A DNA stretch of 64,000 bases from an uncultured Eubacterium sp. (GTDB lineage: Bacteria > Bacillota > Clostridia > Oscillospirales > Acutalibacteraceae): assembly GCA_944380545.1 (NCBI GenBank), contig CALWHV010000007.1, forward strand, positions 186,001-250,000, in the 5' to 3' direction. The notes beneath the pieces were generated by a model. It was not told the DNA's origin, ran no database searches, and saw only the letters and a program-made list of their open reading frames with translations. Both the position numbers and the translations under genes were made by a program. Positions 8,974 through 22,071 of this stretch are shown piece after piece; position 1 is the first letter of the stretch; each line of letters opens with the position of its first letter.

Positions 8974-9774
8974 TTAATTATATTTTCTTATGACCTTTGA
9001 CGGGCATTTTTCGGCGCACAAGCCGCAAGCCGTGCATTTAGTATAATCTATCCTTGCAAGATTATCAACGACCTTGATAGCGCCGGACGGGCAGTTCCTT
9101 TCGCAAAGGCCGCAGCCTATGCAGCCCGCCTGGCAGTTTACCTTTACCACCTTGCCGCGCTGCTTGTTTGAGCACTGCACGCGGTAGACGGAATTTGCCG
9201 GCACCAGCTCTATGAGCTGCTGAGGGCAGGTCTTTACGCATTTGCCGCACGCAACGCACAGCTCCGGCTCAACGACCGCCTTGCCGTTTATGATGCGGAT
9301 AGCCTTGCTGTCGCACACGGCGACGCAGCTTCCGTAGCCCATACAGCCGAAAGAGCAGCTCATATCTCCGCGCCCGAGCGCGAATTTAACTGCGGTGCAG
9401 GTTTTTGTGCCGTAATAATCAAATTTTTTGGTTCTGAGATCCGTGGTGCCGGAGCAGCGGACAAACGCCACATGACGCTCCATCTTGCCCGCCTCAACGC
9501 CCATTATGGCGGCTATCTTATCCGCGCCCGCCTGACCGGCGACGGTGCATGCAGTTACGGGCGCCTCGCCCTTTACAATAGCGCTTGCAAGCGCGTCGCA
9601 CCCGGCATAGCCGCACGCGCCGCAGTTGTTTCCGGCAAGACATTCGCGCACCTCCGCCTCGCGCTCGTCCACTTCAACATGAAAAGCCTTTTCCGCGATA
9701 CTGAGCAGCACGGCTATCGCAACGCCGACCGCGGCTACAACAGCGGTGGCTATCAGCACTGCCTGAACATTCAT
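8974..9774 (-). CDS. rnfB: Ion-translocating ferredoxin:NAD oxidoreductase subunit B
   Basis: A 266-residue electron-entry subunit. It has an N-terminal membrane helix (residues 5-27), the Fe-S cluster motif [11 protein letters not shown] near residue 49, a Cys-rich middle with [12 protein letters not shown], then ferredoxin-type 4Fe-4S pairs [22 protein letters not shown] and [11 protein letters not shown]. It accepts electrons from reduced ferredoxin and passes them into the membrane part of Rnf. ATG at 9774 follows GGAGG. Sixth gene of the rnf operon. Confidence 0.96.
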
Positions 9775-9789
9775 ATACGCATTACCTCC

Positions 9790-10368
9790 TTAAGCGAGCG
9801 AGCTGAAGCCGTAAAACGCGATTGCCATAAGGCAAGCGGTTAAAAGCACGCTCGGCGTGCCGCGAAACGCCTTTGGCACATCGTTGCTCTCTGTTTTTTC
9901 ACGGATGCCGGCAAGGATGATTATGGCTATTGCATAGCCGACCGCGGTGCCGAGACCCGTTACAACGGAGGTGATGAAATCATTGCCGTCCTGCACATTT
10001 GTGAGCGCCACGCCGAGCACGGCGCAGTTTGTGGTGATGAGCGGCAGATAGATGCCGAGCGCCTTGTGGAGCTTCGGCACGAATTTCTTGAGAAACAGCT
10101 CTATAAACTGAACGAGCGCGGCGATGACGAGTATGAATATGATGGTGTTCAGATATTCAAGGCCGAGCTTGGCGATAACGCCGTTATAGAGCAGATTCGT
10201 TACCGCGCTTGCGATGGTGATAACGAATATTACCGCACCGCCCATTCCGGCAGCGGTCTTTATATTTTTAGAAACCCCGATAAAGGAGCATATGCCGAGG
10301 AACTGACTTAAAACAACATTGTTTATCAGCGCCGTTGTGAGCACCACGAGAAGAAGAGTTTTAAACAT
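9790..10368 (-). CDS. rnfA: Rnf complex integral membrane subunit A
   Basis: A 192-residue polytopic protein with about six membrane helices, starting MFKTLLLVVLTTALINNVVL and containing LGICSFIGVSKN and the symmetric ITTNCAVLGVAL. The conserved Cys in each half-repeat bind the intramembrane Fe-S cluster shared with RnfE. Its ATG shares a base with the rnfE stop. Confidence 0.96.
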   Translation of the reverse strand: MFKTLLLVVLTTALINNVVLSQFLGICSFIGVSKNIKTAAGMGGAVIFVITIASAVTNLLYNGVIAKLGLEYLNTIIFILVIAALVQFIELFLKKFVPKLHKALGIYLPLITTNCAVLGVALTNVQDGNDFITSVVTGLGTAVGYAIAIIILAGIREKTESNDVPKAFRGTPSVLLTACLMAIAFYGFSSLA

Positions 10369-11045
10369 TATTCATCGCCCTCCTTTTTGCCGTTGCAGGA
10401 AAGCGAGCAATGCAGGCAGTCGCCCGCGCACTCGTCCTTAACATGGCGGTTGGCGCCCTTGAGCCCCAGCTTGTTTTGAACAGCGGCAAGAAACGCCAGC
10501 ACAAGAAACGCGCCGGGGGCGAGGATGAATATTGAAACGCCCTCGTAGCTTTCGGGCAGTATCTGAAGCCCGAAGCATTTGCCCGTGCCGATTATCTCTC
10601 TGAGCGCGCCGATGGCGATAAGCCCTATCGTGAAGCCGAGACCCATACCGATGCCGTCAAACACGGAGGGCAGCACCTTGTTCTTTGCCGCGTAGCTTTC
10701 GGCGCGGCCGAGGATTATGCAGTTTACGACGATCAGCGGGATATAGAGACCGAGCGCATCGTAGACCGATTTTACATAGGCGTGGAGCAGCAGCTCAACT
10801 ATTGTTACGAACGACGCCACGATAACGATATACGCCGGCATACGAACGCCGTTCGGAATGACCTTTCTGAGCGCCGAGATCATAAGATTGCTCATAACGA
10901 GCACCGCCGTGGTGGCAAGACCCATACCCACGCCGTTTACCGCCGAGGTGGTTACGGCGAGCGTGGGGCACATACCGAGCATCAGCACGAAGATCGGATT
11001 TTCGGTGATTATTCCGTTTTTAAGCCTTTCAACTATCGGATTCAC
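10368..11045 (-). CDS. rnfE: Rnf complex integral membrane subunit E
   Basis: A 225-residue homologue of RnfA with about six membrane helices, with LGMCPTLAVTTSAVNGVGMG near residue 23 and VVNCIILGRAES near residue 107, which place the cluster-binding Cys. It starts with GTG at 11045 after GGAGG, directly behind rnfG. The C-terminus carries an extra Cys-rich tail, DECAGDCLHCSLSCNG, with four Cys in 12 residues. Such a tail appears in some clostridial RnfE proteins and may bind a metal. Confidence 0.95.
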   Translation of the reverse strand: MNPIVERLKNGIITENPIFVLMLGMCPTLAVTTSAVNGVGMGLATTAVLVMSNLMISALRKVIPNGVRMPAYIVIVASFVTIVELLLHAYVKSVYDALGLYIPLIVVNCIILGRAESYAAKNKVLPSVFDGIGMGLGFTIGLIAIGALREIIGTGKCFGLQILPESYEGVSIFILAPGAFLVLAFLAAVQNKLGLKGANRHVKDECAGDCLHCSLSCNGKKEGDE

Positions 11046-11047
11046 GC

Positions 11048-11671
11048 TCAGCCCTCCTTCAGCACTTCGCTGTACGCCGCAAGCGCGGTGTTTACCGCCT
11101 CGGTAACTGCGTTTGTGGTTACGGTCGCGCCGCTTATGGCGTCTATCTGATTGCCTGCTGCGCCGCCGCCCTTAACATATTCTATCTTATCCGCCGCCTT
11201 GCCGGAGAACTGCGAAGCAAAGCCCGGCTCCGTGCATTTGGCGCCGAGACCCGCCGTTTCGCTGTTAGACAAAACGGAGAAGCCCGTTATCTTATCCGCC
11301 GCGGAATCAATGCCTACGGCGACCGAAATATCGCCGCCGTAGCCGTTGGGAGAAACGGCGGCAACAACAAAGCCGATGTCCGCGCCCGTTTCATCCTTTG
11401 CAAAAAGGATATCCGTAACGGTGCAGCCGGAAAGGCCCGCTTGCGCCGCTGCGGCGTTTGCCTGCTGGATAAGCGAATCGGCGTCCTGCGGGGATTCAAA
11501 CACGGCGCCGGGATAAACGCTTTCATACGCCTCAAGGCGCGCGCTTTCCTCCGCCGCGGCGATGGGCGCCTTTGTGACCTCGTACACTGCGGCGAGCGCA
11601 AGGCCTGCAACAAGCGTTATAACAAGAAGCGCCGCGCAGTTTTTAAGAAATGATGATTTCTGCTTTGCCAC
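11048..11671 (-). CDS. rnfG: Rnf complex subunit G with covalent FMN
   Basis: A 207-residue protein with one N-terminal membrane helix and an outward FMN-binding domain. The flavinylation motif is ISGATVTTNAV near residue 177, where the Thr receives FMN from ApbE. GTG start at 11671 overlaps the ribosome site formed by the end of rnfD (GGAGGCG). Confidence 0.95.
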   Translation of the reverse strand: MAKQKSSFLKNCAALLVITLVAGLALAAVYEVTKAPIAAAEESARLEAYESVYPGAVFESPQDADSLIQQANAAAAQAGLSGCTVTDILFAKDETGADIGFVVAAVSPNGYGGDISVAVGIDSAADKITGFSVLSNSETAGLGAKCTEPGFASQFSGKAADKIEYVKGGGAAGNQIDAISGATVTTNAVTEAVNTALAAYSEVLKEG

Positions 11672-11674
11672 CGC

Positions 11675-12616
11675 TTACGCCTCCTTCTTATCCTTCTTTT
11701 TAACGCCGAACGGCCTCGGAACGGTTATCTTTTCAATGATGGGCACAAGCAGATTGCTGATGATTATGGCGTAAGAAACGCCCTCCGCGCTTGAACCGAG
11801 AATTCTGAAAACAGCCGTTAAAAAGCCTATCAGCACGGCGTATACGACCTGACCCCATTTTGTGACGGGGCTGGTGGTGTAGTCCGTTGCCATAAAGAAC
11901 GCGCCCGCCATAAGGCCGCCCGTAAGAAGCTGGCCGAGCATAAACTGCCAGGTGGGAACGCCGCTTGCCGCGCTCTGAAAGATAAATATGAAGAGCGCCG
12001 ACGAAAGTATGTATATAAGCGGTATGCGCGGGGAGATGACCTTTTTTATCATCAGATAAAGCCCGCCCGCAAGGATGCAAACTATCGAGACCTCGCCTAT
12101 GCAGCCCGTTCTGAGACCGAGAAACGCATCCAGCAGATCAACGCTGCCGCCGCTTTTGAGCACGGCAAGCGGAGTTGCGCCGGAAACGCCGTCCACCGAA
12201 AAATCGGTCATCCGCGAGGCAAAGGATATAAGCAGGAAGCAGCGCGCGGCAAGCGCCGGGTTCATAATATTCTGGCCGATGCCGCCGAACAGCATTTTTA
12301 CAACAACGATGGCGAACACGCCGCCCACAGCCGGCACCCACCAGGCAACATCCGGCGGCATATTGAGCGCAAGTATCAGACCTGTTACAACGGCGCTGAG
12401 ATCAAAAACGGTTATGGGCTTTTTAGTTATAAGCTCGAACACTGCCTCGCTTATAACGCAGCTTAAAACCGAAGATATTATCACGAACAGCGCGTTGAGC
12501 CCGAAATGGACAACGCCGAAAATCAGCGTGGGGGCAAGCGCTATGCACACATCGAGCATAATCTTTGTTGTGCTGCTCTTATCCCTTATATGAGGTGAAA
12601 CGGAAACATTATACAT
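11675..12616 (-). CDS. rnfD: Rnf complex subunit D, FMN-bearing membrane protein
   Basis: A 313-residue protein with about nine membrane helices. The flavinylation site is DGVSGATPLAVLK near residue 150, whose Thr carries covalent FMN. The C-terminal ATDYTTSPVTKWGQ is typical of the RnfD/NqrB family. RnfD is thought to form part of the ion path. It starts one base inside the rnfC stop. Confidence 0.95.
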   Translation of the reverse strand: MYNVSVSPHIRDKSSTTKIMLDVCIALAPTLIFGVVHFGLNALFVIISSVLSCVISEAVFELITKKPITVFDLSAVVTGLILALNMPPDVAWWVPAVGGVFAIVVVKMLFGGIGQNIMNPALAARCFLLISFASRMTDFSVDGVSGATPLAVLKSGGSVDLLDAFLGLRTGCIGEVSIVCILAGGLYLMIKKVISPRIPLIYILSSALFIFIFQSAASGVPTWQFMLGQLLTGGLMAGAFFMATDYTTSPVTKWGQVVYAVLIGFLTAVFRILGSSAEGVSYAIIISNLLVPIIEKITVPRPFGVKKKDKKEA

Positions 12617-13953
12617 CAGCTCTTGACCTCCTGCGCCTTGGCTTTTGCCGCCCTGACCTGCGCCTTTGCAAGCTTAAAGGTCTGCGTGAGCGGCCTTTTG
12701 GCGGGGCACACATATGTGCAGCAGCCGCACTCTATACATTCCATACCGCCGAGCGAAACAAAGCGCTCGTAATCCTCCGCCTTTGCGGCGTGAGCCATAA
12801 GCTGCGGCACAAGCCCCTGCGGGCACACGCCCACGCACCTGCCGCATCTGATGCAGGCGGTGGTTTTCATCTTTTCCACATCATCGCGCGTGAGGGCAAG
12901 CAGGCAGGAAAAGGTTTTGGTTATCGGCACATTCAGATCGCCTATCGCCGTGCCCATCATAGGACCGCCGCTTATAAGCTTATGCGTGTCCGCGCTCAGC
13001 CCGCCGCACTGCTCTGCGGCGTCCGCCGCAGAAATTCCGAGCGGCACATCGGCGTTGCAGGGGGTGTTCATCCCCTTGCCGGTGAAGGTGACTATTCTGT
13101 GGATGAGCGGCTTGTTTTCACACACCGCCTCAAAGATAGCAAAGGCGGTGGCAACATTGAGCACCACTACGCCCGCGTCCGCCGGCAGCATATGGGAATT
13201 TATCTTCCTGCCCGTAACGCTTGCAATCAGCCGGCGCTCGCCGCCCTGCGGGTATCTTGTTTTCAGCGATGCAACGCTTATGCGCTCAAGCCCCTTACAT
13301 TCCTCCGAAAACACCTTTACGGCCTCCGGCTTATTATCCTCTATTGCAATAACCGCCTTTGCCGACGGGAACAGGCGAAGCGCTATTGAAACGCCGGTAA
13401 GTATATTTCCGGCGCGCTCCACCATAAGGCGGTAATCCGAGGTGATATAAGGCTCGCACTCCGCGCCGTTTATAATCAGATAATCTATATTTTCCGCGTT
13501 TTTGGGCGTGAGCTTTACCGCCGTGGGGAAGCCGGCGCCGCCCATTCCCACGATGCCGGAATCGGCTATAACGGCGGCTATATCCTTTGCGGACAGCTCG
13601 TTGGGGTCGCGCGCCTCTCCGAAGCCGGCAGCGCACTCGTCCTCAAAATCATTTTCAACGACCACGCATTTTGACGCTCTGCCGTTTGCGCACAGCCGCT
13701 CCTCAACCGCCTTTACCTTGCCGGAAACGGAGGAAAAAACGGGGCTTGAAACGGCGCCCTGAGCAGCCGCCAGAAGCGAGCCCTTGAGCACCCTGTCTCC
13801 CGGCTTAACAACGGGCGACGCGGGCGCGCCGATATGCTGGCTTAAAGGAAACACCATTTCCTTTGCCGCCTGTATTTTTATCACGGGTGCGTTTTCCGAA
13901 AAACGCTTGCCGTCAAACGGGTGTATGCCCGACCTAAAGGGTACCTTTTTCAT
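12616..13953 (-). CDS. rnfC: Rnf complex subunit C (NAD-reducing)
   Basis: A 445-residue peripheral subunit that reduces NAD with electrons from the complex. It has an N-terminal barrel-sandwich domain, the nucleotide and FMN-binding segment GMGGAGFPTAVKL with INGAECEPYITSDY near residue 165, and two 4Fe-4S motifs, CIRCGRCVGVCPQGL and CIECGCCTYVCPAKRPL, near the C-terminus. ATG at 13953 (AAGGAG 8 bases upstream) is chosen over 13983 because the promoter at 13974-14002 would start transcription inside the longer form. It is the first gene of the operon. Confidence 0.95.
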   Translation of the reverse strand: MKKVPFRSGIHPFDGKRFSENAPVIKIQAAKEMVFPLSQHIGAPASPVVKPGDRVLKGSLLAAAQGAVSSPVFSSVSGKVKAVEERLCANGRASKCVVVENDFEDECAAGFGEARDPNELSAKDIAAVIADSGIVGMGGAGFPTAVKLTPKNAENIDYLIINGAECEPYITSDYRLMVERAGNILTGVSIALRLFPSAKAVIAIEDNKPEAVKVFSEECKGLERISVASLKTRYPQGGERRLIASVTGRKINSHMLPADAGVVVLNVATAFAIFEAVCENKPLIHRIVTFTGKGMNTPCNADVPLGISAADAAEQCGGLSADTHKLISGGPMMGTAIGDLNVPITKTFSCLLALTRDDVEKMKTTACIRCGRCVGVCPQGLVPQLMAHAAKAEDYERFVSLGGMECIECGCCTYVCPAKRPLTQTFKLAKAQVRAAKAKAQEVKS

Positions 13954-13973
13954 ACGCCACACTCCTTTTTCTA

Positions 13974-14002
13974 ATTCTACCATAACGGCGCGGCTATTTC
14001 AA
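13974..14002 (-). promoter_or_regulatory. Promoter of the rnf operon
   Basis: TTGAAA (13997-14002), a 17-base spacer and TAGAAT (13974-13979) preceded by TGG (extended -10) on the minus strand. It directs ten co-oriented genes down to 6524 and decides the rnfC start. Confidence 0.75.
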
Positions 14003-14530: not shown

Positions 14531-14559
14531 ATTATAGCTTTATATTTCCGTCTCGTCAA
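14531..14559 (-). promoter_or_regulatory. Promoter of the small lipoprotein gene
   Basis: TTGACG (14554-14559), 17 bases, TATAAT (14531-14536) on the minus strand. The -35 overlaps the last codons of the HAD-DUF523 gene. Confidence 0.75.
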
Positions 14560-15811
14560 GAAGCTCGGCGACACTGCTTTCGCCGAATATCCTGATGCCG
14601 CATTTAAGCAGCATTTCGGCGGCGACGCCGTTTCCCTCTGTAAGGGCGCCGGTAAAGCTGCCGTCGTATATCTCGCCGCAGCCGCAGGAGGGGCTGCGCT
14701 CCTTGAGCACGGCAAGCCTTGCGCCGCACTCCTCGGCTATATAGAGCGTTTTTTCCGCGCCGCTCACAAACTGAGCCGTAACATCGGCGCCGCTTTTTGA
14801 ATAGACCCTGCCGCCCCGTATCTCGCTCGGTTCGCGCGGCGACTTAAGACCGCCGAAGGTCTCAGGGCAGACGGCAACTATATCAAAATCCTTTTGCAAG
14901 GCGAGAACGGCGGGGTTTTTATTGTTTGAGCCGTTATATTTGCAGTTTTCGCCCAAAAGGCAGGCGGAAACTATAAGGCGCGGCTTTTTGCCGAGCGCGT
15001 ATTTTTCAACAAAGGCGGCGACGCCGTCCCTCTCATTAGAAAGCGTGACATACCGCGCGCTGCGCTTAACGATACCGGCGGCGTTTTCCATTGCCGCACC
15101 GTAGCCGGCGTATTGAAGCATACCTATATCGTTGTCCGCGTCGCCGAACGCCATAACCTCGCCGCTCTCTATTCCGAGGGAGGCGCAAAGCCCGCCGAGC
15201 GCGCCGGATTTATCAACGCCCTTTGCCGTCATCTCTATATCTCCGGCAACGGGCGAGGTGCAGTCCACGCCCGGATGGGAAAACAGGTAATCCCTTATCT
15301 CTTTATAATAAGGCTCGTTATAGTCGAAGCAGAAAAGATTTATCTTTTCAACGCCCTTTTGCGCAAAGGGCATAATATCGTCCTCCGACGCGGTGGAGGC
15401 GGCGTACGCCTCAAGAAATTCGGCGGGCAGGTCCATACCCTTGAAATATTTTTCGCGCCCCTTTTGGGTGTGCTGCGAGCCGTTTTGATAAAACTCGAAA
15501 TACACCGGATACGAGAGCAAAAACGAAAAGATATCGCGCGCGGTCTCGGCCGGCATATACTGCGCGTAAACGGTTTTTGCGCTGTGAAGATCACACACCG
15601 CCGCGCCGTTTGAATAGATCACATAATCAAGAAACGGAAGCTGCTCTATGACTCCGTAAATGACGGACAGCGTGCGCCCGGTTGCAACGGCAAGCTTTAT
15701 TCCGCGCTCGTGCGCCTGTGAAAGCGCGCGGACATTCCCCGGCGAAACGGTGATATGGTCCGCGCCGAGCAGTGTGCCGTCCAGATCGCAGGCTATCAGT
15801 TTTACAGCCAT
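14540..15811 (-). CDS. HAD-IIB (Cof-type) hydrolase fused to a DUF523 domain
   Basis: A 423-residue two-domain protein. Residues 1-275 are a Cof/YbjI-type HAD phosphatase: catalytic DLDGTLLG with Asp9 and Asp11, AVATGR, and EVMAFGDADNDIGML near the domain end. Residues 280-423 are a full DUF523 domain: SACLLGENCKYNG (Cys284, Cys290), VCPETFGGLKSPREPSEI (Cys315) and SPSCGCGEIYDG (Cys376, Cys378). DUF523 includes thiouracil desulfurases (TudS) that use a 4Fe-4S cluster held by three of these Cys. ATG at 15811 follows GGAGG and lies 21 bases after atpC, with no terminator visible between, so it probably ends the atp transcript. Phosphatase substrate unknown; desulfurase activity is inferred from the family only. 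Confidence 0.88.
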   Translation of the reverse strand: MAVKLIACDLDGTLLGADHITVSPGNVRALSQAHERGIKLAVATGRTLSVIYGVIEQLPFLDYVIYSNGAAVCDLHSAKTVYAQYMPAETARDIFSFLLSYPVYFEFYQNGSQHTQKGREKYFKGMDLPAEFLEAYAASTASEDDIMPFAQKGVEKINLFCFDYNEPYYKEIRDYLFSHPGVDCTSPVAGDIEMTAKGVDKSGALGGLCASLGIESGEVMAFGDADNDIGMLQYAGYGAAMENAAGIVKRSARYVTLSNERDGVAAFVEKYALGKKPRLIVSACLLGENCKYNGSNNKNPAVLALQKDFDIVAVCPETFGGLKSPREPSEIRGGRVYSKSGADVTAQFVSGAEKTLYIAEECGARLAVLKERSPSCGCGEIYDGSFTGALTEGNGVAAEMLLKCGIRIFGESSVAELLDETEI

Positions 15812-15832: not shown

Positions 15833-16245
15833 TCATATCTCGTGCCTGTTTTTGACCTTTATCCTCTCCATAGCGCGGGAGAGGTTTGCCTTGGTAACAT
15901 AATAGTCAAACTGGCTCATCTTCTGGCGAAGCTCCTCCTCGGCCCTTTCCTTTGCCTCCTCGGCGCGGCGTCTGTCTATCTCCTCGGGCAGCTCAACGGA
16001 AACGCATATCATAGTTGCCTCGCCGCTGAGGAACTCCAAAAACCCGTCGCCCACGAACGCCTCCTTCACCTCGCCGCCGGCTGTTTTGAGCCTCATCTCG
16101 CCGGCGTCGACAGGCATAACGGCGTTGCAGTGGCGCGCAAGGAAGGTAACGGCGCCGCCGTCGATATACGGCACGGTAAGGCTCTGCGCCTCGCCGTCAA
16201 AAAACACCTTGTTTGACGCTACTATTTTTACCCTGAAAGTCTCCA

Positions 16246-16246
<1 letters not shown>
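15833..16246 (-). CDS. atpC: ATP synthase F1 epsilon subunit
   Basis: A 137-residue epsilon subunit: N-terminal beta-sandwich (FRVKIVASNKVFFDGEAQSL, GGAVTFLARHCNAVMPV) and a C-terminal helical hairpin beginning at DRRRAEEAKERAEEELRQ. It sits on the central stalk with gamma and can inhibit hydrolysis. The start ATG at 16246 overlaps the atpD stop (TGATG); TTG at 16249 is less likely. The usual ARHCNA differs slightly from the common PxHxPL motif. Confidence 0.93.
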
Positions 16247-17634
<1,388 letters not shown>

Positions 17635-17646
17635 TTAGGATTCCTC

Positions 17647-18531
17647 CTAATTCTTCTTTTTCTGAGCCTTTGCGCCGGCGATGATCTCCGTTATCTCCTG
17701 CGTTATGGCTGCCTGGCGCGCCCTGTTATACTGCACATTGAGCTGGCGCAGCATATCCGAAGCGGCGTCCGTTGCGGTCTGCATAGCCATCATTCTGGCG
17801 TTGTGCTCGCTGCAATAGGATTCTATCAGCGCGCCGTAAATGAAGCCGGCAACATAATCCGGCACTATATTGTTGAACACGGTTTGCGCATCGGGCATAA
17901 ATTCGGCGTTTTGGTAATAATCGCCCTCGCCGCGAAGCTCTATGCGCTCCGCTTTGAGCGGCAGCAGCCTTGTTGTTACGGGCTCCACCGTCATTGAATT
18001 CACCATTCTGGTGAAAACAACATAAACATCGTCAAGCTTCTTTTCCTCAAAAAGGTCAACAAGTATCTTGGCGATATGCCTTGCGCGGTTCATCGTTGGA
18101 TTCTGGGCGGTGTAATTGAAGCTGATATCAATGGGGGTATTGCGCTTTTCAAAATAATGCCTGCCCACCTGACCGACGATGAAAAGCATATTCTGCGCCT
18201 CCATAGCGGCGCTTTCCTCGGTGGATTTTATGATATTGTGGTTATACGCGCCCGCAAGCCCCTTATCGGCGGTTATAACAAGATAGCCCTTGCGCCTGTT
18301 TGCGCCGGAGCGTTCGGGGCGCATATCGAAATAATCGTTGCCCGCCTCAGGCGCAACATTCAGTATTTTGGCAAGCCCGTCCTGAATCATATAAAAGAAC
18401 GGCTCTGTGTTTTTGAGGTCGCGCCGCGCCTTTTGAAGCTTGGAGGAGGACACCATATACATCGCGTTCGTGATCTTCATAGTGTCCTTAATGGACTTCA
18501 TCCTGCCGAGTATCTCTCTTGCGTTAGCCAT
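17647..18531 (-). CDS. atpG: ATP synthase F1 gamma subunit
   Basis: A 294-residue rotor shaft. The N-terminal helix MANAREILGRMKSIKDTMKI and C-terminal helix near NRARQAAITQEITEIIAGA form the coiled coil. The middle has ITADKGLAGAYNHNI. Its ATG overlaps the end of the delta-alpha fusion by 8 bases, so translation is coupled. Confidence 0.96.
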   Translation of the reverse strand: MANAREILGRMKSIKDTMKITNAMYMVSSSKLQKARRDLKNTEPFFYMIQDGLAKILNVAPEAGNDYFDMRPERSGANRRKGYLVITADKGLAGAYNHNIIKSTEESAAMEAQNMLFIVGQVGRHYFEKRNTPIDISFNYTAQNPTMNRARHIAKILVDLFEEKKLDDVYVVFTRMVNSMTVEPVTTRLLPLKAERIELRGEGDYYQNAEFMPDAQTVFNNIVPDYVAGFIYGALIESYCSEHNARMMAMQTATDAASDMLRQLNVQYNRARQAAITQEITEIIAGAKAQKKKN

Positions 18532-20551
18532 TATATTCCTTCTCGAATCTGTCTATATCCTTAAGGATGCGCTCCTTGAGCTCATCCGAAAGGGTTTTTT
18601 CGGTTTGGATATCGTTTACCGCGTCGGCGCAGTTTTCCTCAAAATATTCAAGCAGCTTTGCCTGATATGACTTGAGCTTTTCCACCGGCACATTCACGAA
18701 TTTTCTGCCTATGGCGCCCACGAGCGTTATCACCTGCTGTGCAAGCGACATCGGGCGGCCGAGCGGCTGCTTGAGCAGCTCCATAAGCCCCTTGCCGTAA
18801 TTGAGGCCCGCCTTGGTTTCCTCGTCAAGATCCGAGGAGAACTGGGTGAACACCTCCATCTCCCTGAACTGGGCAAGGTCTACGCGCAGAGAGCCGGCGG
18901 CTTTTTTCATTGCCTTGGTCTGCGCGGCGCCGCCTACACGGGAAACGGAAAGGCCGACATTAACAGCCGGACGCTGGCCGCTGAAGAACAGATCGCTCTC
19001 AAGGAATATCTGGCCGTCCGTGATTGAAATAACATTTGTGGGAATATATGCGGAAACATCGCCCGCCTGCGTTTCTATAATCGGCAGCGCGGTTATAGAG
19101 CCGCCGCCCAGCTCATCCGAAAGACGGCTGGAACGCTCCAGCAGCCTTGAATGAAGATAGAAAACATCGCCGGGATAAGCCTCTCGTCCGGGCGAGCGCT
19201 CAAGCAGCAGCGAAAGCGCGCGGTACGCCACGGCGTGCTTGCTGAGGTCGTCGTAAACGATGAGGACATCCCTGCCGGAATACATAAAATATTCCGCAAG
19301 CGCCGTTGCGGAATACGGCGAAATATATTGAAGCGACGCGGGGTCCGCCGCGTTTGAGCACACAACGATAGTGTAGTCGAGCGCGCCGTGCTTTTGCAGC
19401 GTGCCCACAAGCTTTGCAACCGTGGAGGTCTTCTGCCCTATCGCATTATATATGCAGATGCAGTTTTTGCCCTTTTGGTTGAGTATGGTGTCAAGAGCTA
19501 TTGAGGTCTTGCCCGTCTGGCGGTCGCCGATTATAAGCTCTCTCTGCCCTCTGCCTATCGGGAACATTGAATCTATTGCAAGTATGCCGGTTTCCAGCGG
19601 CTCGCAGACGGATTTCCTGTCTACGATGGACGGGGCGGCGTTTTCAACCATACGGTAATCGTCCGCCTTTATATCGCCCTTGCCGTCTATCGGCTCGCAC
19701 AGGGCGTTAACCACTCTGCCGATGAACGCGTCGCCCACGGGAACGCCCGCCTTTCTGTGCGTGCGCTTAACGCGCGAGCCGGCGTGTATCTCGCTGTCCA
19801 GCCCGAAGAGGATGCAGCCGACGGAGGTGCGCTTGATGTCCTGCACCATACCCTTGATGCCGCTGTCGAACTGCACGATCTCGCCGTACATAACATGGTC
19901 GAGCCCGTGTATAGAGGCGATGCCGTCGCCCACGGAGATAACAGTGCCTATCTCCTCGTCCGAGGTCTCAAACTCATAGTCCCTGACCTCGCTGCGCAGA
20001 ATGGAGATAATCTCGCTGTGGGTCTCCTCCTTGGTGCGCTTTGCCTCGTCCACTATCTTTGCCTTGATGTCGTTTATCTTTGTTTTAAGGCTTCTGTCAT
20101 ACTGCTTGTTGCCCAGCTCTATGATAAAGCCGCCCAGCAGGCTCTCGTCCTTTATTATCTCTATCTCGGCGGAGCCTGCGCCGGCCTCCTTAACAACAAA
20201 ATCGCGGATGCCGTCAAGCTGCTTTTCATCCGGCGGAGTTACGCAGTAAAGCTTTGCGCGGGCAACCTTATTTTTGCTGTCCGACGCGGCGATGAACGCC
20301 TCCTTGAGCTCCTCCATCAAATCGAGCCTGCAATCCACGGCAAGCTCCTCCACAACCTCGCAGACGCAGGAGGGGAATATCTCCTCCACAACCTTTTTCT
20401 TTTCCGCAACGGTTACGGTGGGGCTCATCAGAATCTTATAAAGCTCTTTTGTTTTAAGCAGGTCCTGCGCCTTTTCAATATCGGCAACGCCGGCCTCCGA
20501 GGCAAGCAGCGTTTTGACCAATTCATCCTTTTTACGAATCATTCTCCCCAC
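18524..20551 (-). CDS. Fused ATP synthase delta-alpha polypeptide
   Basis: One 675-codon frame encodes two F1 subunits. Residues 1 to about 172 match the delta/OSCP subunit: LYKILMSPTVTVAEKKKVVEEIF in the N-terminal helical domain and the C-terminal signature DESLLGGFIIELGNKQYD, but the first 25 or so residues of a usual delta (the YAKALF helix) are missing. From about residue 178 it is a complete alpha subunit: IGTVISVGDGIASIHGL, P-loop IGDRQTGKTSIALD near residue 345, and ALPIIETQAGDVSAYIPTNV. No stop or frame break separates the parts. GTG at 20551 (AAGGAA upstream) or ATG at 20542 is the start, overlapping atpF. No other delta gene lies in the operon. F1 needs three alpha and one delta, so a permanent fusion is unexpected. 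Confidence 0.93.
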   Translation of the reverse strand: MGRMIRKKDELVKTLLASEAGVADIEKAQDLLKTKELYKILMSPTVTVAEKKKVVEEIFPSCVCEVVEELAVDCRLDLMEELKEAFIAASDSKNKVARAKLYCVTPPDEKQLDGIRDFVVKEAGAGSAEIEIIKDESLLGGFIIELGNKQYDRSLKTKINDIKAKIVDEAKRTKEETHSEIISILRSEVRDYEFETSDEEIGTVISVGDGIASIHGLDHVMYGEIVQFDSGIKGMVQDIKRTSVGCILFGLDSEIHAGSRVKRTHRKAGVPVGDAFIGRVVNALCEPIDGKGDIKADDYRMVENAAPSIVDRKSVCEPLETGILAIDSMFPIGRGQRELIIGDRQTGKTSIALDTILNQKGKNCICIYNAIGQKTSTVAKLVGTLQKHGALDYTIVVCSNAADPASLQYISPYSATALAEYFMYSGRDVLIVYDDLSKHAVAYRALSLLLERSPGREAYPGDVFYLHSRLLERSSRLSDELGGGSITALPIIETQAGDVSAYIPTNVISITDGQIFLESDLFFSGQRPAVNVGLSVSRVGGAAQTKAMKKAAGSLRVDLAQFREMEVFTQFSSDLDEETKAGLNYGKGLMELLKQPLGRPMSLAQQVITLVGAIGRKFVNVPVEKLKSYQAKLLEYFEENCADAVNDIQTEKTLSDELKERILKDIDRFEKEYNG

Positions 20552-21023
20552 TGCTTTCCTTCAGAAATTCATCAAAAATCGCGCTGTTGTCGTTTGCGCT
20601 TATATTTGCGCCCACAACCTTTTCGGCAGCCGCCATCGCAAGGGAGGCGATATCCTCTCTGGCGTTTTGCCTTGCCTTTTCGCTTTCGGCCTCTATCTGC
20701 TTTTGGGCGGTCTCCTTCATTTTGGCAACATCCTCGCCCGCGCGGTCGATAATGCGCGAATATTCCGTTTTTGCGCTCTCGCGCGCTTCGGCAAGTATGC
20801 GCTGCGATTCGTCGTCGGCGCCCTGAAGCTTGTCCTCATACTGCTTTTTGAGCTCAAGTGCTTCGTTTTTGGCGCTGTCCGCCTCTTCAAACTGCTTGTT
20901 TATCATCTCTTTGCGCTTATTCATCACCTTTAGGATGGGCTTGAAGAGAAATCTTCTCATCAAAAAGTAAAAGATGACGAGATTTATAAGCGTGAAAAGA
21001 ATATTCCAGTCAAATTTAAGCAT
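20532..21023 (-). CDS. atpF: ATP synthase F0 b subunit
   Basis: A 163-residue peripheral-stalk subunit with one N-terminal membrane helix (about residues 8-28) and a long charged helix starting near KPILKVMNKRKEMINKQFEEA. It links the a subunit to F1 via delta, here the delta part of the fusion. ATG at 21023 preferred over TTG at 21026; the end overlaps the fusion gene start. Confidence 0.94.
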   Translation of the reverse strand: MLKFDWNILFTLINLVIFYFLMRRFLFKPILKVMNKRKEMINKQFEEADSAKNEALELKKQYEDKLQGADDESQRILAEARESAKTEYSRIIDRAGEDVAKMKETAQKQIEAESEKARQNAREDIASLAMAAAEKVVGANISANDNSAIFDEFLKESSGENDS

Positions 21024-21042
21024 CAACCGTTATCCTTTCAAA

Positions 21043-21282
<240 letters not shown>

Positions 21283-21327: not shown

Positions 21328-22041
21328 CTATTCTTCCACGGCCTCGTTTATATACATCGCCGTGAGGAACACAAATATATACGCCTGCAAAAATCCGTCA
21401 AACAAATCAAAATACAGGCTGAACGCAAGTGAAACGCCTATCTTGAAAAAGATGATGCTCTTCAGCAGCTCCATAATTATGAACGCGCCGATAACATTGC
21501 CGAAAAGACGCATACAAAGCGAAAGCGGCTTGATGATTATCTCAAGAATATTTATCGGCGTAACTATGGCGACCGGCTTTGCAAACGACTTTAAATGGCC
21601 GCCGAGCCCTTTTTCTCTGATTCCGGCGATCTCCACAAGAATAATGCTTGTAAGCGCCATTGCGGCGGTATCCTGCATACTTTTGGTGGGCGGCTTAAAG
21701 CCCAGAATCCCTATCATATTGCACGCGCCGATGAATATCGCGGTGCTCATAAGCCACGGGGCGTATTTTGCGCCCTTTTCGCCCAGAACCCCATTAAAGA
21801 AATTCATCATCTTATCCATACAAACCTCAAGTATCTGCTGGCGCTTGGATATTTCGCCGCTGACCTTAAGATTGCGCGTAAGGATAATCGCAAGCACCGT
21901 AAGCGCCGCCATGATTATCCAGGAAACCACCGTGGTTTCGTCCACGGATATATTTGTGCCCGGAACAGTAAAGACCGTTTGAATCTCAAGCTGCTCAAGC
22001 AGCTCCTCTTTAAGGTCCATATTGACGGGCAACATTTCCAT
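21328..22041 (-). CDS. atpB: ATP synthase F0 a subunit
   Basis: A 237-residue stator channel subunit with about six membrane helices. The essential Arg lies in KPLSLCMRLFGNVIGA in the second half, and the last helices include FDGFLQAYIFVFLTAMYI. ATG at 22041 follows AGGGGG by 5 bases; GTG at 22047 is too close to it. First gene of the operon; no atpI precedes it. Confidence 0.94.
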   Translation of the reverse strand: MEMLPVNMDLKEELLEQLEIQTVFTVPGTNISVDETTVVSWIIMAALTVLAIILTRNLKVSGEISKRQQILEVCMDKMMNFFNGVLGEKGAKYAPWLMSTAIFIGACNMIGILGFKPPTKSMQDTAAMALTSIILVEIAGIREKGLGGHLKSFAKPVAIVTPINILEIIIKPLSLCMRLFGNVIGAFIIMELLKSIIFFKIGVSLAFSLYFDLFDGFLQAYIFVFLTAMYINEAVEE

Positions 22042-22071
22042 AAGCACGCCCCCTTATATAAATTCACGCTC

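What the first reader, a model, noticed from the sequence alone, without database searches (positions are those of the whole stretch)
18524..20551. Delta and alpha subunits of ATP synthase encoded as one polypeptide
Seen: one frame without stop joins a delta/OSCP-like part (residues 1 to about 172, missing its first helix) to a complete alpha subunit. Known: F1 has three alpha and one delta, and delta caps the alpha N-termini. A permanent fusion would give three delta per enzyme, so either two copies are disordered or degraded, or the protein is processed, or alpha is also made alone. An SD-like AAGGAGGAG (20024-20032) lies exactly at the junction but has no ATG/GTG/TTG at good distance; an ATT codon sits 12 bases on. 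It could be a relic of the separate alpha gene.
Basis: partly seen in the sequence, partly recalled or inferred. Interest (0 to 1): 0.8.

Follow-up and report, generated by a model that had tools for sequence, protein, structure and literature searches.

The report
Delta-alpha fused ATP synthase, multi-stalk candidate
In the only ATP synthase found in this bacterium's genome, two normally separate parts (delta and alpha) are encoded as one protein, so each enzyme would carry three deltas instead of one and is predicted to hold more than one side stalk, which would let it make ATP from a weaker ion gradient.

Summary
The fusion is real. One 675-codon frame (18524-20551, minus strand) joins the ATP synthase delta subunit to alpha. 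It is not an assembly error: a 99%-identical protein on another contig and most sampled species of the genus have the same frame. It is the only delta (OSCP) match in the genome. [quoted passage not shown] The window is a natural variant that keeps the NTD. New here: the fusion occurs in twelve families of the order; the NTD was lost at least four times inside this genus; related families carry a b-delta-alpha triple fusion that would give every alpha its own membrane anchor. My favoured mechanism is one stalk socket per alpha, allowing more than one stalk. This is inferred. The NTD is under purifying selection overall and ribosome-binding-site strengths give no support, so a one-stalk enzyme with two idle deltas remains a serious rival.

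The parts
18524..20551 (-). delta-alpha fused subunit gene, 675 codons (GTG start; 672 from the ATG at 20540-20542)
20270..20530 (-). delta N-terminal domain, predicted six-helix bundle
   Evidence: AF2 helices 5-91 of the 672-aa form, block pLDDT 62-80; OSCP match from profile position 25; dN/dS 0.10-0.37 in 10 of 11 genus pairs, one saturated
20036..20266 (-). delta C-terminal domain (the b-binding half in known enzymes)
   Evidence: one-stretch sequence match 96-671 to the engineered fusion chain 9jc1_I
20021..20035 (-). about five-residue linker; contains the SD-like AAGGAGGAG (20024-20032), not conserved in relatives
19979..20020 (-). alpha N-terminal helix
18527..19957 (-). alpha barrel, nucleotide-binding and C-terminal domains
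21328..22047 (-). atpB, a subunit (only PF00119 match in the genome)
21043..21261 (-). atpE, c subunit
20532..21026 (-). atpF, b subunit (only PF00430 match in the genome; overlaps the fusion start)
17647..18531 (-). atpG, gamma subunit (overlaps the fusion stop)
16246..17631 (-). atpD, beta subunit
15833..16249 (-). atpC, epsilon subunit, both domains

Best explanation
The gene encodes one polypeptide that joins the delta subunit, its N-terminal domain included, to alpha, so each of the three alphas would carry its own stalk-binding delta half, which is predicted to let the enzyme hold up to three peripheral stalks, each likely with its own a subunit. Shown: the single frame, its conservation, the absence of another delta match in the genome, and several losses of the delta N-terminal domain among fused relatives. 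Inferred from the engineered PS3 enzyme (PMC12229609): a delta C-terminal half tied to each alpha recruits a b2 stalk and an a subunit at up to three positions, and ions per turn equal the number of c times the number of a subunits. Inferred here: in the window's enzyme one of the three N-terminal domains can still sit in the central dimple while the tethered C-terminal halves bind stalks. The likely benefit is ATP synthesis at a low ion gradient in a fermenter that charges its membrane with Rnf, whose operon lies downstream. Untested: the number of stalks and the ion/ATP ratio.
For: Fusion is real and exclusive: 55 of 60 genus genomes have an OSCP match and none of the 55 has two; 45 keep the N-terminal domain (NTD), 8 are fused without it, 2 are unfused. 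The PDB chain of the engineered enzyme (9jc1_I) is the top Foldseek match of the model and matches 96-671 in one sequence stretch. The NTD, which that paper says limits stalks to one, was lost repeatedly: 5 changes of that label on a 46-row tree, all 5 forced by starred branches, 4 of them inside the genus. Helix 1 of the NTD looks less constrained than the rest (dN/dS 0.16-2.47 in 11 pairs, few sites). Related families carry b-deltaCTD-alpha fusions (9 frames of 737-784 aa fetched, all with a membrane-type N-terminal stretch, ATP-synt_B found in 7 of 7 tested; the 120 listed of 818 protein hits all cover 99% of the b-delta query region), which would anchor every alpha to the membrane. Rnf operon at 8974-13983.
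Against: The window's protein keeps the NTD, which as a whole is under purifying selection (dN/dS 0.10-0.37 in 10 of 11 close pairs, one saturated) and is as conserved in fused as in unfused pairs, so it is not a relic and may still enforce one stalk. Shine-Dalgarno strength gives no sign of extra a subunit (a minus gamma, p=0.67), and b is if anything weaker in fused loci (p=0.01, opposite to expectation). The genome has one a gene and one b gene. Five named strains with the NTD-keeping fusion each also hold a canonical separate delta, so there the fused enzyme is a second enzyme. No complex was modelled; the AF2 monomer is modest (mean pLDDT 70).
Confidence: 0.45

Rival explanations
1. One-stalk enzyme: one of the three delta moieties docks in the central dimple and holds the single b2 stalk as usual, while the other two are flexible passengers; the fusion mainly secures delta on F1.
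For: The NTD is kept in 45 of 55 genus genomes with an OSCP match and is under purifying selection; a and b translation signals are not stronger in fused loci; single a and b genes.
Against: The engineered fusion took up extra stalks, though it also lacked the NTD (PMC12229609). Repeated loss of the NTD in the genus and the b-delta-alpha triple fusions are hard to explain if only one delta is used.
Confidence: 0.38
2. The chain is cut after synthesis, or alpha is also made from an internal start, giving ordinary 3 alpha and 1 delta.
For: The SD-like AAGGAGGAG at 20024-20032; the linker is short and variable.
Against: No usable start follows it and AAGGAGG is in the linker stretch of only 3 of 36 fused genus relatives; SD plus start in 16 of 115 fused loci against 10.7 expected, control 23 of 31. 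Cleavage was not testable here. A cut enzyme would not be expected to tolerate loss of the NTD or fusion to b (inference).
Confidence: 0.13
3. Sequencing or assembly artefact: a stop and start between two genes were lost in the assembly.
For: Only that separate genes are the norm elsewhere.
Against: A 99%-identical fused protein on another contig; the fused frame recurs through the genus.
Confidence: 0.01

Closest known systems
Engineered deltaDeltaN-alpha FoF1 of Bacillus PS3 (PMC12229609; PDB 9jc1)
   Same: delta C-terminal half joined in one chain to the alpha N-terminus; sequence match over 96-671 in one stretch, top Foldseek hit
   Different: The engineered protein lacks the delta NTD (residues 2-104) and used an epsilon without its C-terminal domain; the window's fusion is natural, keeps the NTD and has a full epsilon
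Natural delta-alpha fusion of Acidaminococcus fermentans and UniProt G4Q3K6, A0A1I2C5T3 (named in the Discussion of PMC12229609)
   Same: Natural delta-alpha gene fusion in an anaerobe (anaerobe: recalled)
   Different: A. fermentans is said to lack the delta NTD; the window keeps it. I did not see those sequences
b-delta fusion (NCBIfam NF009961, F0F1 ATP synthase subunit B/delta, listed; its mycobacterial occurrence is recalled)
   Same: delta permanently joined to another stator subunit
   Different: Joined to b; here joined to alpha, of which F1 has three
Canonical bacterial F1Fo
   Same: All subunit types a, b, c, alpha, beta, gamma, delta, epsilon are encoded, in one operon
   Different: No free delta gene; delta:alpha would be 1:1

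Membership tests
F-type ATP synthase alpha subunit (AtpA) | match to TIGR00962 above its cut-off over nearly the full model | tested here: met
   761.5 bits against 484.45, model 4-501 of 503
F-type ATP synthase delta/OSCP | PF00213 match above its cut-off | tested here: met
   73.6 bits against 22.3, profile 25-171 of 172
F-type ATP synthase delta/OSCP | six-helix N-terminal domain plus alpha/beta C-terminal domain | tested here: met
   AF2 prediction, helices 5-14, 19-29, 32-39, 45-55, 58-69, 73-91, then C-terminal domain 93-169; a prediction, helix 1 at block pLDDT 62-74
deltaDeltaN-alpha multi-stalk FoF1 (Ueno et al. 2025) | delta C-terminal half fused to the alpha N-terminus, no free delta | tested here: met
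deltaDeltaN-alpha multi-stalk FoF1 (Ueno et al. 2025) | delta N-terminal domain absent | tested here: not met
   present in the window; absent in 8 of 55 genus genomes with an OSCP match
deltaDeltaN-alpha multi-stalk FoF1 (Ueno et al. [quoted passage not shown] raised ion/ATP ratio | not testable with these tools
   needs the purified enzyme
b-delta fusion type | delta fused to b | tested here: not met
   b is a separate gene at 20532-21026

The most novel reading that the evidence does not exclude
Anaerobic Clostridia and their kin have evolved ATP synthases with several peripheral stalks more than once: delta-alpha fusion gives one stalk socket per alpha, the now dispensable symmetry-breaking delta N-terminal domain is then shed again and again, and in some families the stalk b subunit itself is fused on (b-delta-alpha), so that three membrane-anchored stalks per enzyme become obligatory and the ion/ATP ratio is multiplied. 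The window is a living intermediate that is fused but still holds the N-terminal domain.
Probability: 0.45. Interest if true: 0.9.

Novelty: new variant of a known kind. Interest (0 to 1): 0.68.

Why it matters
The single off-axis stalk is a textbook property of ATP synthase and, with c-ring size, fixes the ion cost of ATP. A 2025 engineering study showed that NTD-less delta-alpha fusion can break that rule and named three natural candidates awaiting test. Here the natural fusions form a broad series (separate, fused with NTD, fused without NTD, tandem delta halves, b-delta-alpha), with named strains such as Pseudobutyrivibrio xylanivorans DSM 14809 and Agathobacter ruminis JK623 among the carriers. 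This makes the question whether nature uses multi-stalk ATP synthases directly testable, and would change estimates of ATP yield in rumen and gut fermentation if true.

Tried and rejected
Internal start for alpha alone: scanned, not supported. SD-like site as a relic: AAGGAGG in the linker stretch of 3 of 36 fused genus relatives. 'First helix missing': not borne out by the model and alignment. Relaxed selection on the whole NTD in fused proteins, expected under the simplest multi-stalk story: not found, though helix 1 alone (14 codons, noisy) has dN/dS 0.16-2.47. Stronger a and b translation in fused loci: not found. Unfused G027/G030 as the ancestral state: they branch beside the window, but their operon looks mosaic: alpha to epsilon are 84-94% identical to the window, while a is 54-55% against 60-79% in 10 other genus operons, b 48% and the delta C-terminal half 49-52% lie at or near the distant end, c (80-82%) is unremarkable, and the NTD has no match, which is also true of one NTD-keeping relative (L028) and the two NTD-less ones in that call. 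Their delta is nearest to an unfused Mediterraneibacter delta, but only at 35%, with fused genus deltas close behind, so no donor is shown. I read this tentatively as replacement of the upstream half with a breakpoint near the delta/alpha junction. Membrane PPase: none found in the genome. Papers: searches returned nothing; in the listings (titles and starts of abstracts) I saw no other description of a delta-alpha or b-delta-alpha fusion; PMC4478896, on rumen butyrivibrio energetics, of which I saw passages only, has 0 occurrences of 'fused' or 'fusion'. Subscription journals are mostly not held, and a PNAS paper on Pseudobutyrivibrio ruminis that I recalled is not held.

Full report
OBSERVATION. 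On the minus strand a frame of 675 codons runs from 20551 to 18524 without a stop. Pfam places OSCP/delta at residues 24-165 and the three alpha domains at 200-668; NCBIfam calls the alpha part atpA at 761.5 bits against a cut-off of 484.45. The neighbours are a, c, b before it and gamma, beta, epsilon after it, all with their Pfam domains. The genome (98.98% complete) has one OSCP match, this one, one a and one b match, and a search with the whole protein finds only this alpha and its beta; in several other species the same query also lists further, weaker ATPase matches. So this looks like the only rotary ATPase of the genome. An assembly error is made very unlikely by a 99%-identical protein on another contig (P0003) and by the relatives. 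All 114 hits of the search with the delta part carry OSCP plus alpha domains, but that search admits only proteins of 0.55-1.75 times the query length, so separate deltas were left out by design.

WHAT IS PRESENT IN DELTA. The AlphaFold2 model (52-row alignment, mean pLDDT 70.2) gives six helices (5-14, 19-29, 32-39, 45-55, 58-69, 73-91; block pLDDT 62-80, lowest at the N-terminus), then the C-terminal domain (93-169), a loop of about five residues and the alpha N-terminal helix (175-188) (numbering from the ATG). Pfam starts late because helix 1 has changed: the residue after the conserved Tyr position is A or G in 29 of 29 unfused deltas and A in 12 of 13 fused deltas outside the genus, but V, I or L in 31 of 31 fused deltas of the genus (the rows are related, so this may be one event). 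In the genus-wide Pfam search, matches in the 45 NTD-keeping fusions start at profile positions 21-26, while the two unfused ones start at 4 and 11.

DISTRIBUTION. Genus: 55 of 60 genomes have an OSCP match and none has two; 45 keep the NTD (three of these frames are short, 190, 526 and 636 aa, apparently cut by contig ends), 8 are fused without it (one frame cut), 2 are unfused; of the 5 without a match, 3 are at least 90% complete, so absence or contig breaks cannot be told apart there. Order: by my count from the listed rows, 47 of 295 genomes (the window's own included) hold an uninterrupted delta-alpha frame of at least 570 aa, in twelve families (the row list was cut at the weak end). 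Phylum-wide sample at E<=1e-38: 8 of 299, the window's own and one order member included. Named carriers of the NTD-keeping form are Agathobacter ruminis JK623, a strain deposited as Lactobacillus rogosae ATCC 27753 (now Lachnospira, recalled), Pseudobutyrivibrio xylanivorans DSM 14809, Oribacterium sp. F0262 and Lachnospiraceae bacterium GAM79; each of these five also has a separate canonical delta, while the two other genomes searched (an Eubacterium sp. and an Acutalibacter assembly) have only the fused one. Butyrivibrio and Acutalibacter assemblies and Absicoccus porci carry the form without the NTD.

EVOLUTION. On a 147-row alpha tree (quick search; 31 unfused, 44 fused with NTD, 70 fused without, 2 triple) the states need 17 changes. 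On a careful 46-row tree of the genus and neighbours, the NTD-less state needs 5 changes, all forced by starred branches and constant over bootstraps: four inside the genus and one in a neighbouring genus, whose row is a flagged long branch. Inside the genus the NTD-less lineages are nested among NTD-keeping ones, so loss after fusion is the natural reading. The two unfused species are the window's nearest neighbours by alpha (98/98 support), but their operon looks mosaic: alpha to epsilon 84-94% identical to the window, a 54-55% against 60-79% in 10 other genus operons (c does not follow this pattern, and no donor was identified).

SELECTION. In 11 close pairs of NTD-keeping fusions, dN/dS of the NTD is 0.10-0.37 in 10 (one saturated), of the C-terminal domain 0.03-0.23 in the 6 not saturated, of the alpha core 0.03-0.08, and of helix 1 alone 0.16-2.47 (14 codons, noisy) (synonymous sites are near saturation in most pairs, so values are rough). 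Mean identities of NTD and C-terminal domain, fused against unfused, by alpha identity: 65-72%: 22/35 against 26/32; 72-78%: 27/40 against 29/35; 78-84%: 38/55 against 35/39; 84-92%: 50/62 against 50/62 (pairs not independent). So the NTD as a whole is not relaxed after fusion; the C-terminal domain is more conserved in fused pairs in the middle bins but not in the closest one. This is against a simple picture of decay after fusion.

HOW IT MIGHT WORK. In the engineered PS3 enzyme (PMC12229609: abstract, passages and the Discussion section read) deletion of the delta NTD and fusion of the remaining half to alpha gave up to three stalks and a subunits, two on average, and an H+/ATP ratio of 5.8 against 3.0. 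The authors name Acidaminococcus fermentans and two UniProt entries as natural cases awaiting test. A chain of that structure (9jc1) is the top structural match of the window's model and matches 96-671 in one sequence stretch. By analogy each alpha of the window's enzyme would bring its own stalk socket. The open point is the retained NTD, of which only one copy can occupy the axis. I give the multi-stalk reading 0.45 and the one-stalk reading with idle deltas 0.38.

THE TRIPLE FUSION. Nine order members have frames of 737-784 aa that I fetched: a b-like N-terminal helix, a coil, the delta C-terminal half and alpha. All nine have a membrane-type stretch near the start; Pfam finds ATP-synt_B at E<=0.05 in 7 of 7 tested, 4 of 7 above its cut-off. 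A protein search with residues 1-270 of one gives 818 hits among 7994 scored candidates; the 120 listed all cover 99% of that region (the unlisted ones may include plain delta-alpha fusions), and all 120 have a membrane-type stretch in the first 45 residues, against 0 of 114 delta-alpha fusions. The model of one shows helices 2-55 and 72-123, then the delta C-terminal domain 162-236 and the alpha helix 245-258 (N-terminal part pLDDT mostly 75-91, alpha core poor). Its operon (L045) also holds a separate b gene. If all three alphas are such chains, three membrane anchors per enzyme are unavoidable. This is the strongest indirect support for natural multi-stalk enzymes, and it does not come from the window itself.

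OTHER TESTS. Internal start: 16 of 115 fused loci against 10.7 expected; control 23 of 31. SD-like AAGGAGG in the linker stretch: 3 of 36 fused genus relatives. SD strength: a minus gamma does not differ between unfused (19) and fused (44) loci (p=0.67), b minus gamma is weaker in fused (p=0.01). No second a or b gene within the fetched loci or in the window's genome. Bioenergetic setting: an apparently complete rnfCDGEAB set lies at 8974-13983 on the same strand (RnfD by Pfam; the other names from reading the frames), and no membrane PPase was found. From recall, the c subunit lacks the Gln and Ser typical of Na+ sites, so H+ is more likely; this is untested.

VERDICT. A real, conserved delta-alpha fusion that is the only delta of its genome; the basic idea is in print for an NTD-less form, and this is a natural NTD-keeping variant within a wider series than I found in the papers I could search.

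Noticed in passing
L041, L045, L180-L186; proteins P0115-P0234: b-deltaCTD-alpha triple fusion (737-784 aa frames), with a separate b gene upstream in L045; where a source names these proteins it is as an ordinary alpha (or once delta) subunit.
   Followed up: partly
L155 (G134), frame 681 aa: Two tandem delta C-terminal halves fused to one alpha (two OSCP stretches in Pfam).
   Followed up: partly
L049 (G052): A separate 74-residue frame holding only the delta C-terminal half, directly before an unfused alpha: loss of the delta NTD without fusion.
   Followed up: no
L196, L197 (G027, G030): Mosaic-looking atp operon: a, b and delta diverged, alpha to epsilon close to the window; breakpoint near the delta/alpha junction.
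   Followed up: partly
L045:6974-7264: The epsilon subunit beside the triple fusion is 96 aa and matches only the beta-sandwich domain, without the C-terminal helices.
   Followed up: no
window 8974-13983 (-): Apparently complete Rnf operon downstream of the ATP synthase operon.
   Followed up: partly
genomes G293, G308, G213, G264, G328, G286: Genomes with two matches, one with a fused frame and one apparently ordinary, suggesting two ATP synthases.
   Followed up: no
window 14540-15811 (-): One frame joins a HAD-type phosphatase-like part to a C-terminal part that looks like a DUF523-type domain (by eye, no family search).
   Followed up: no
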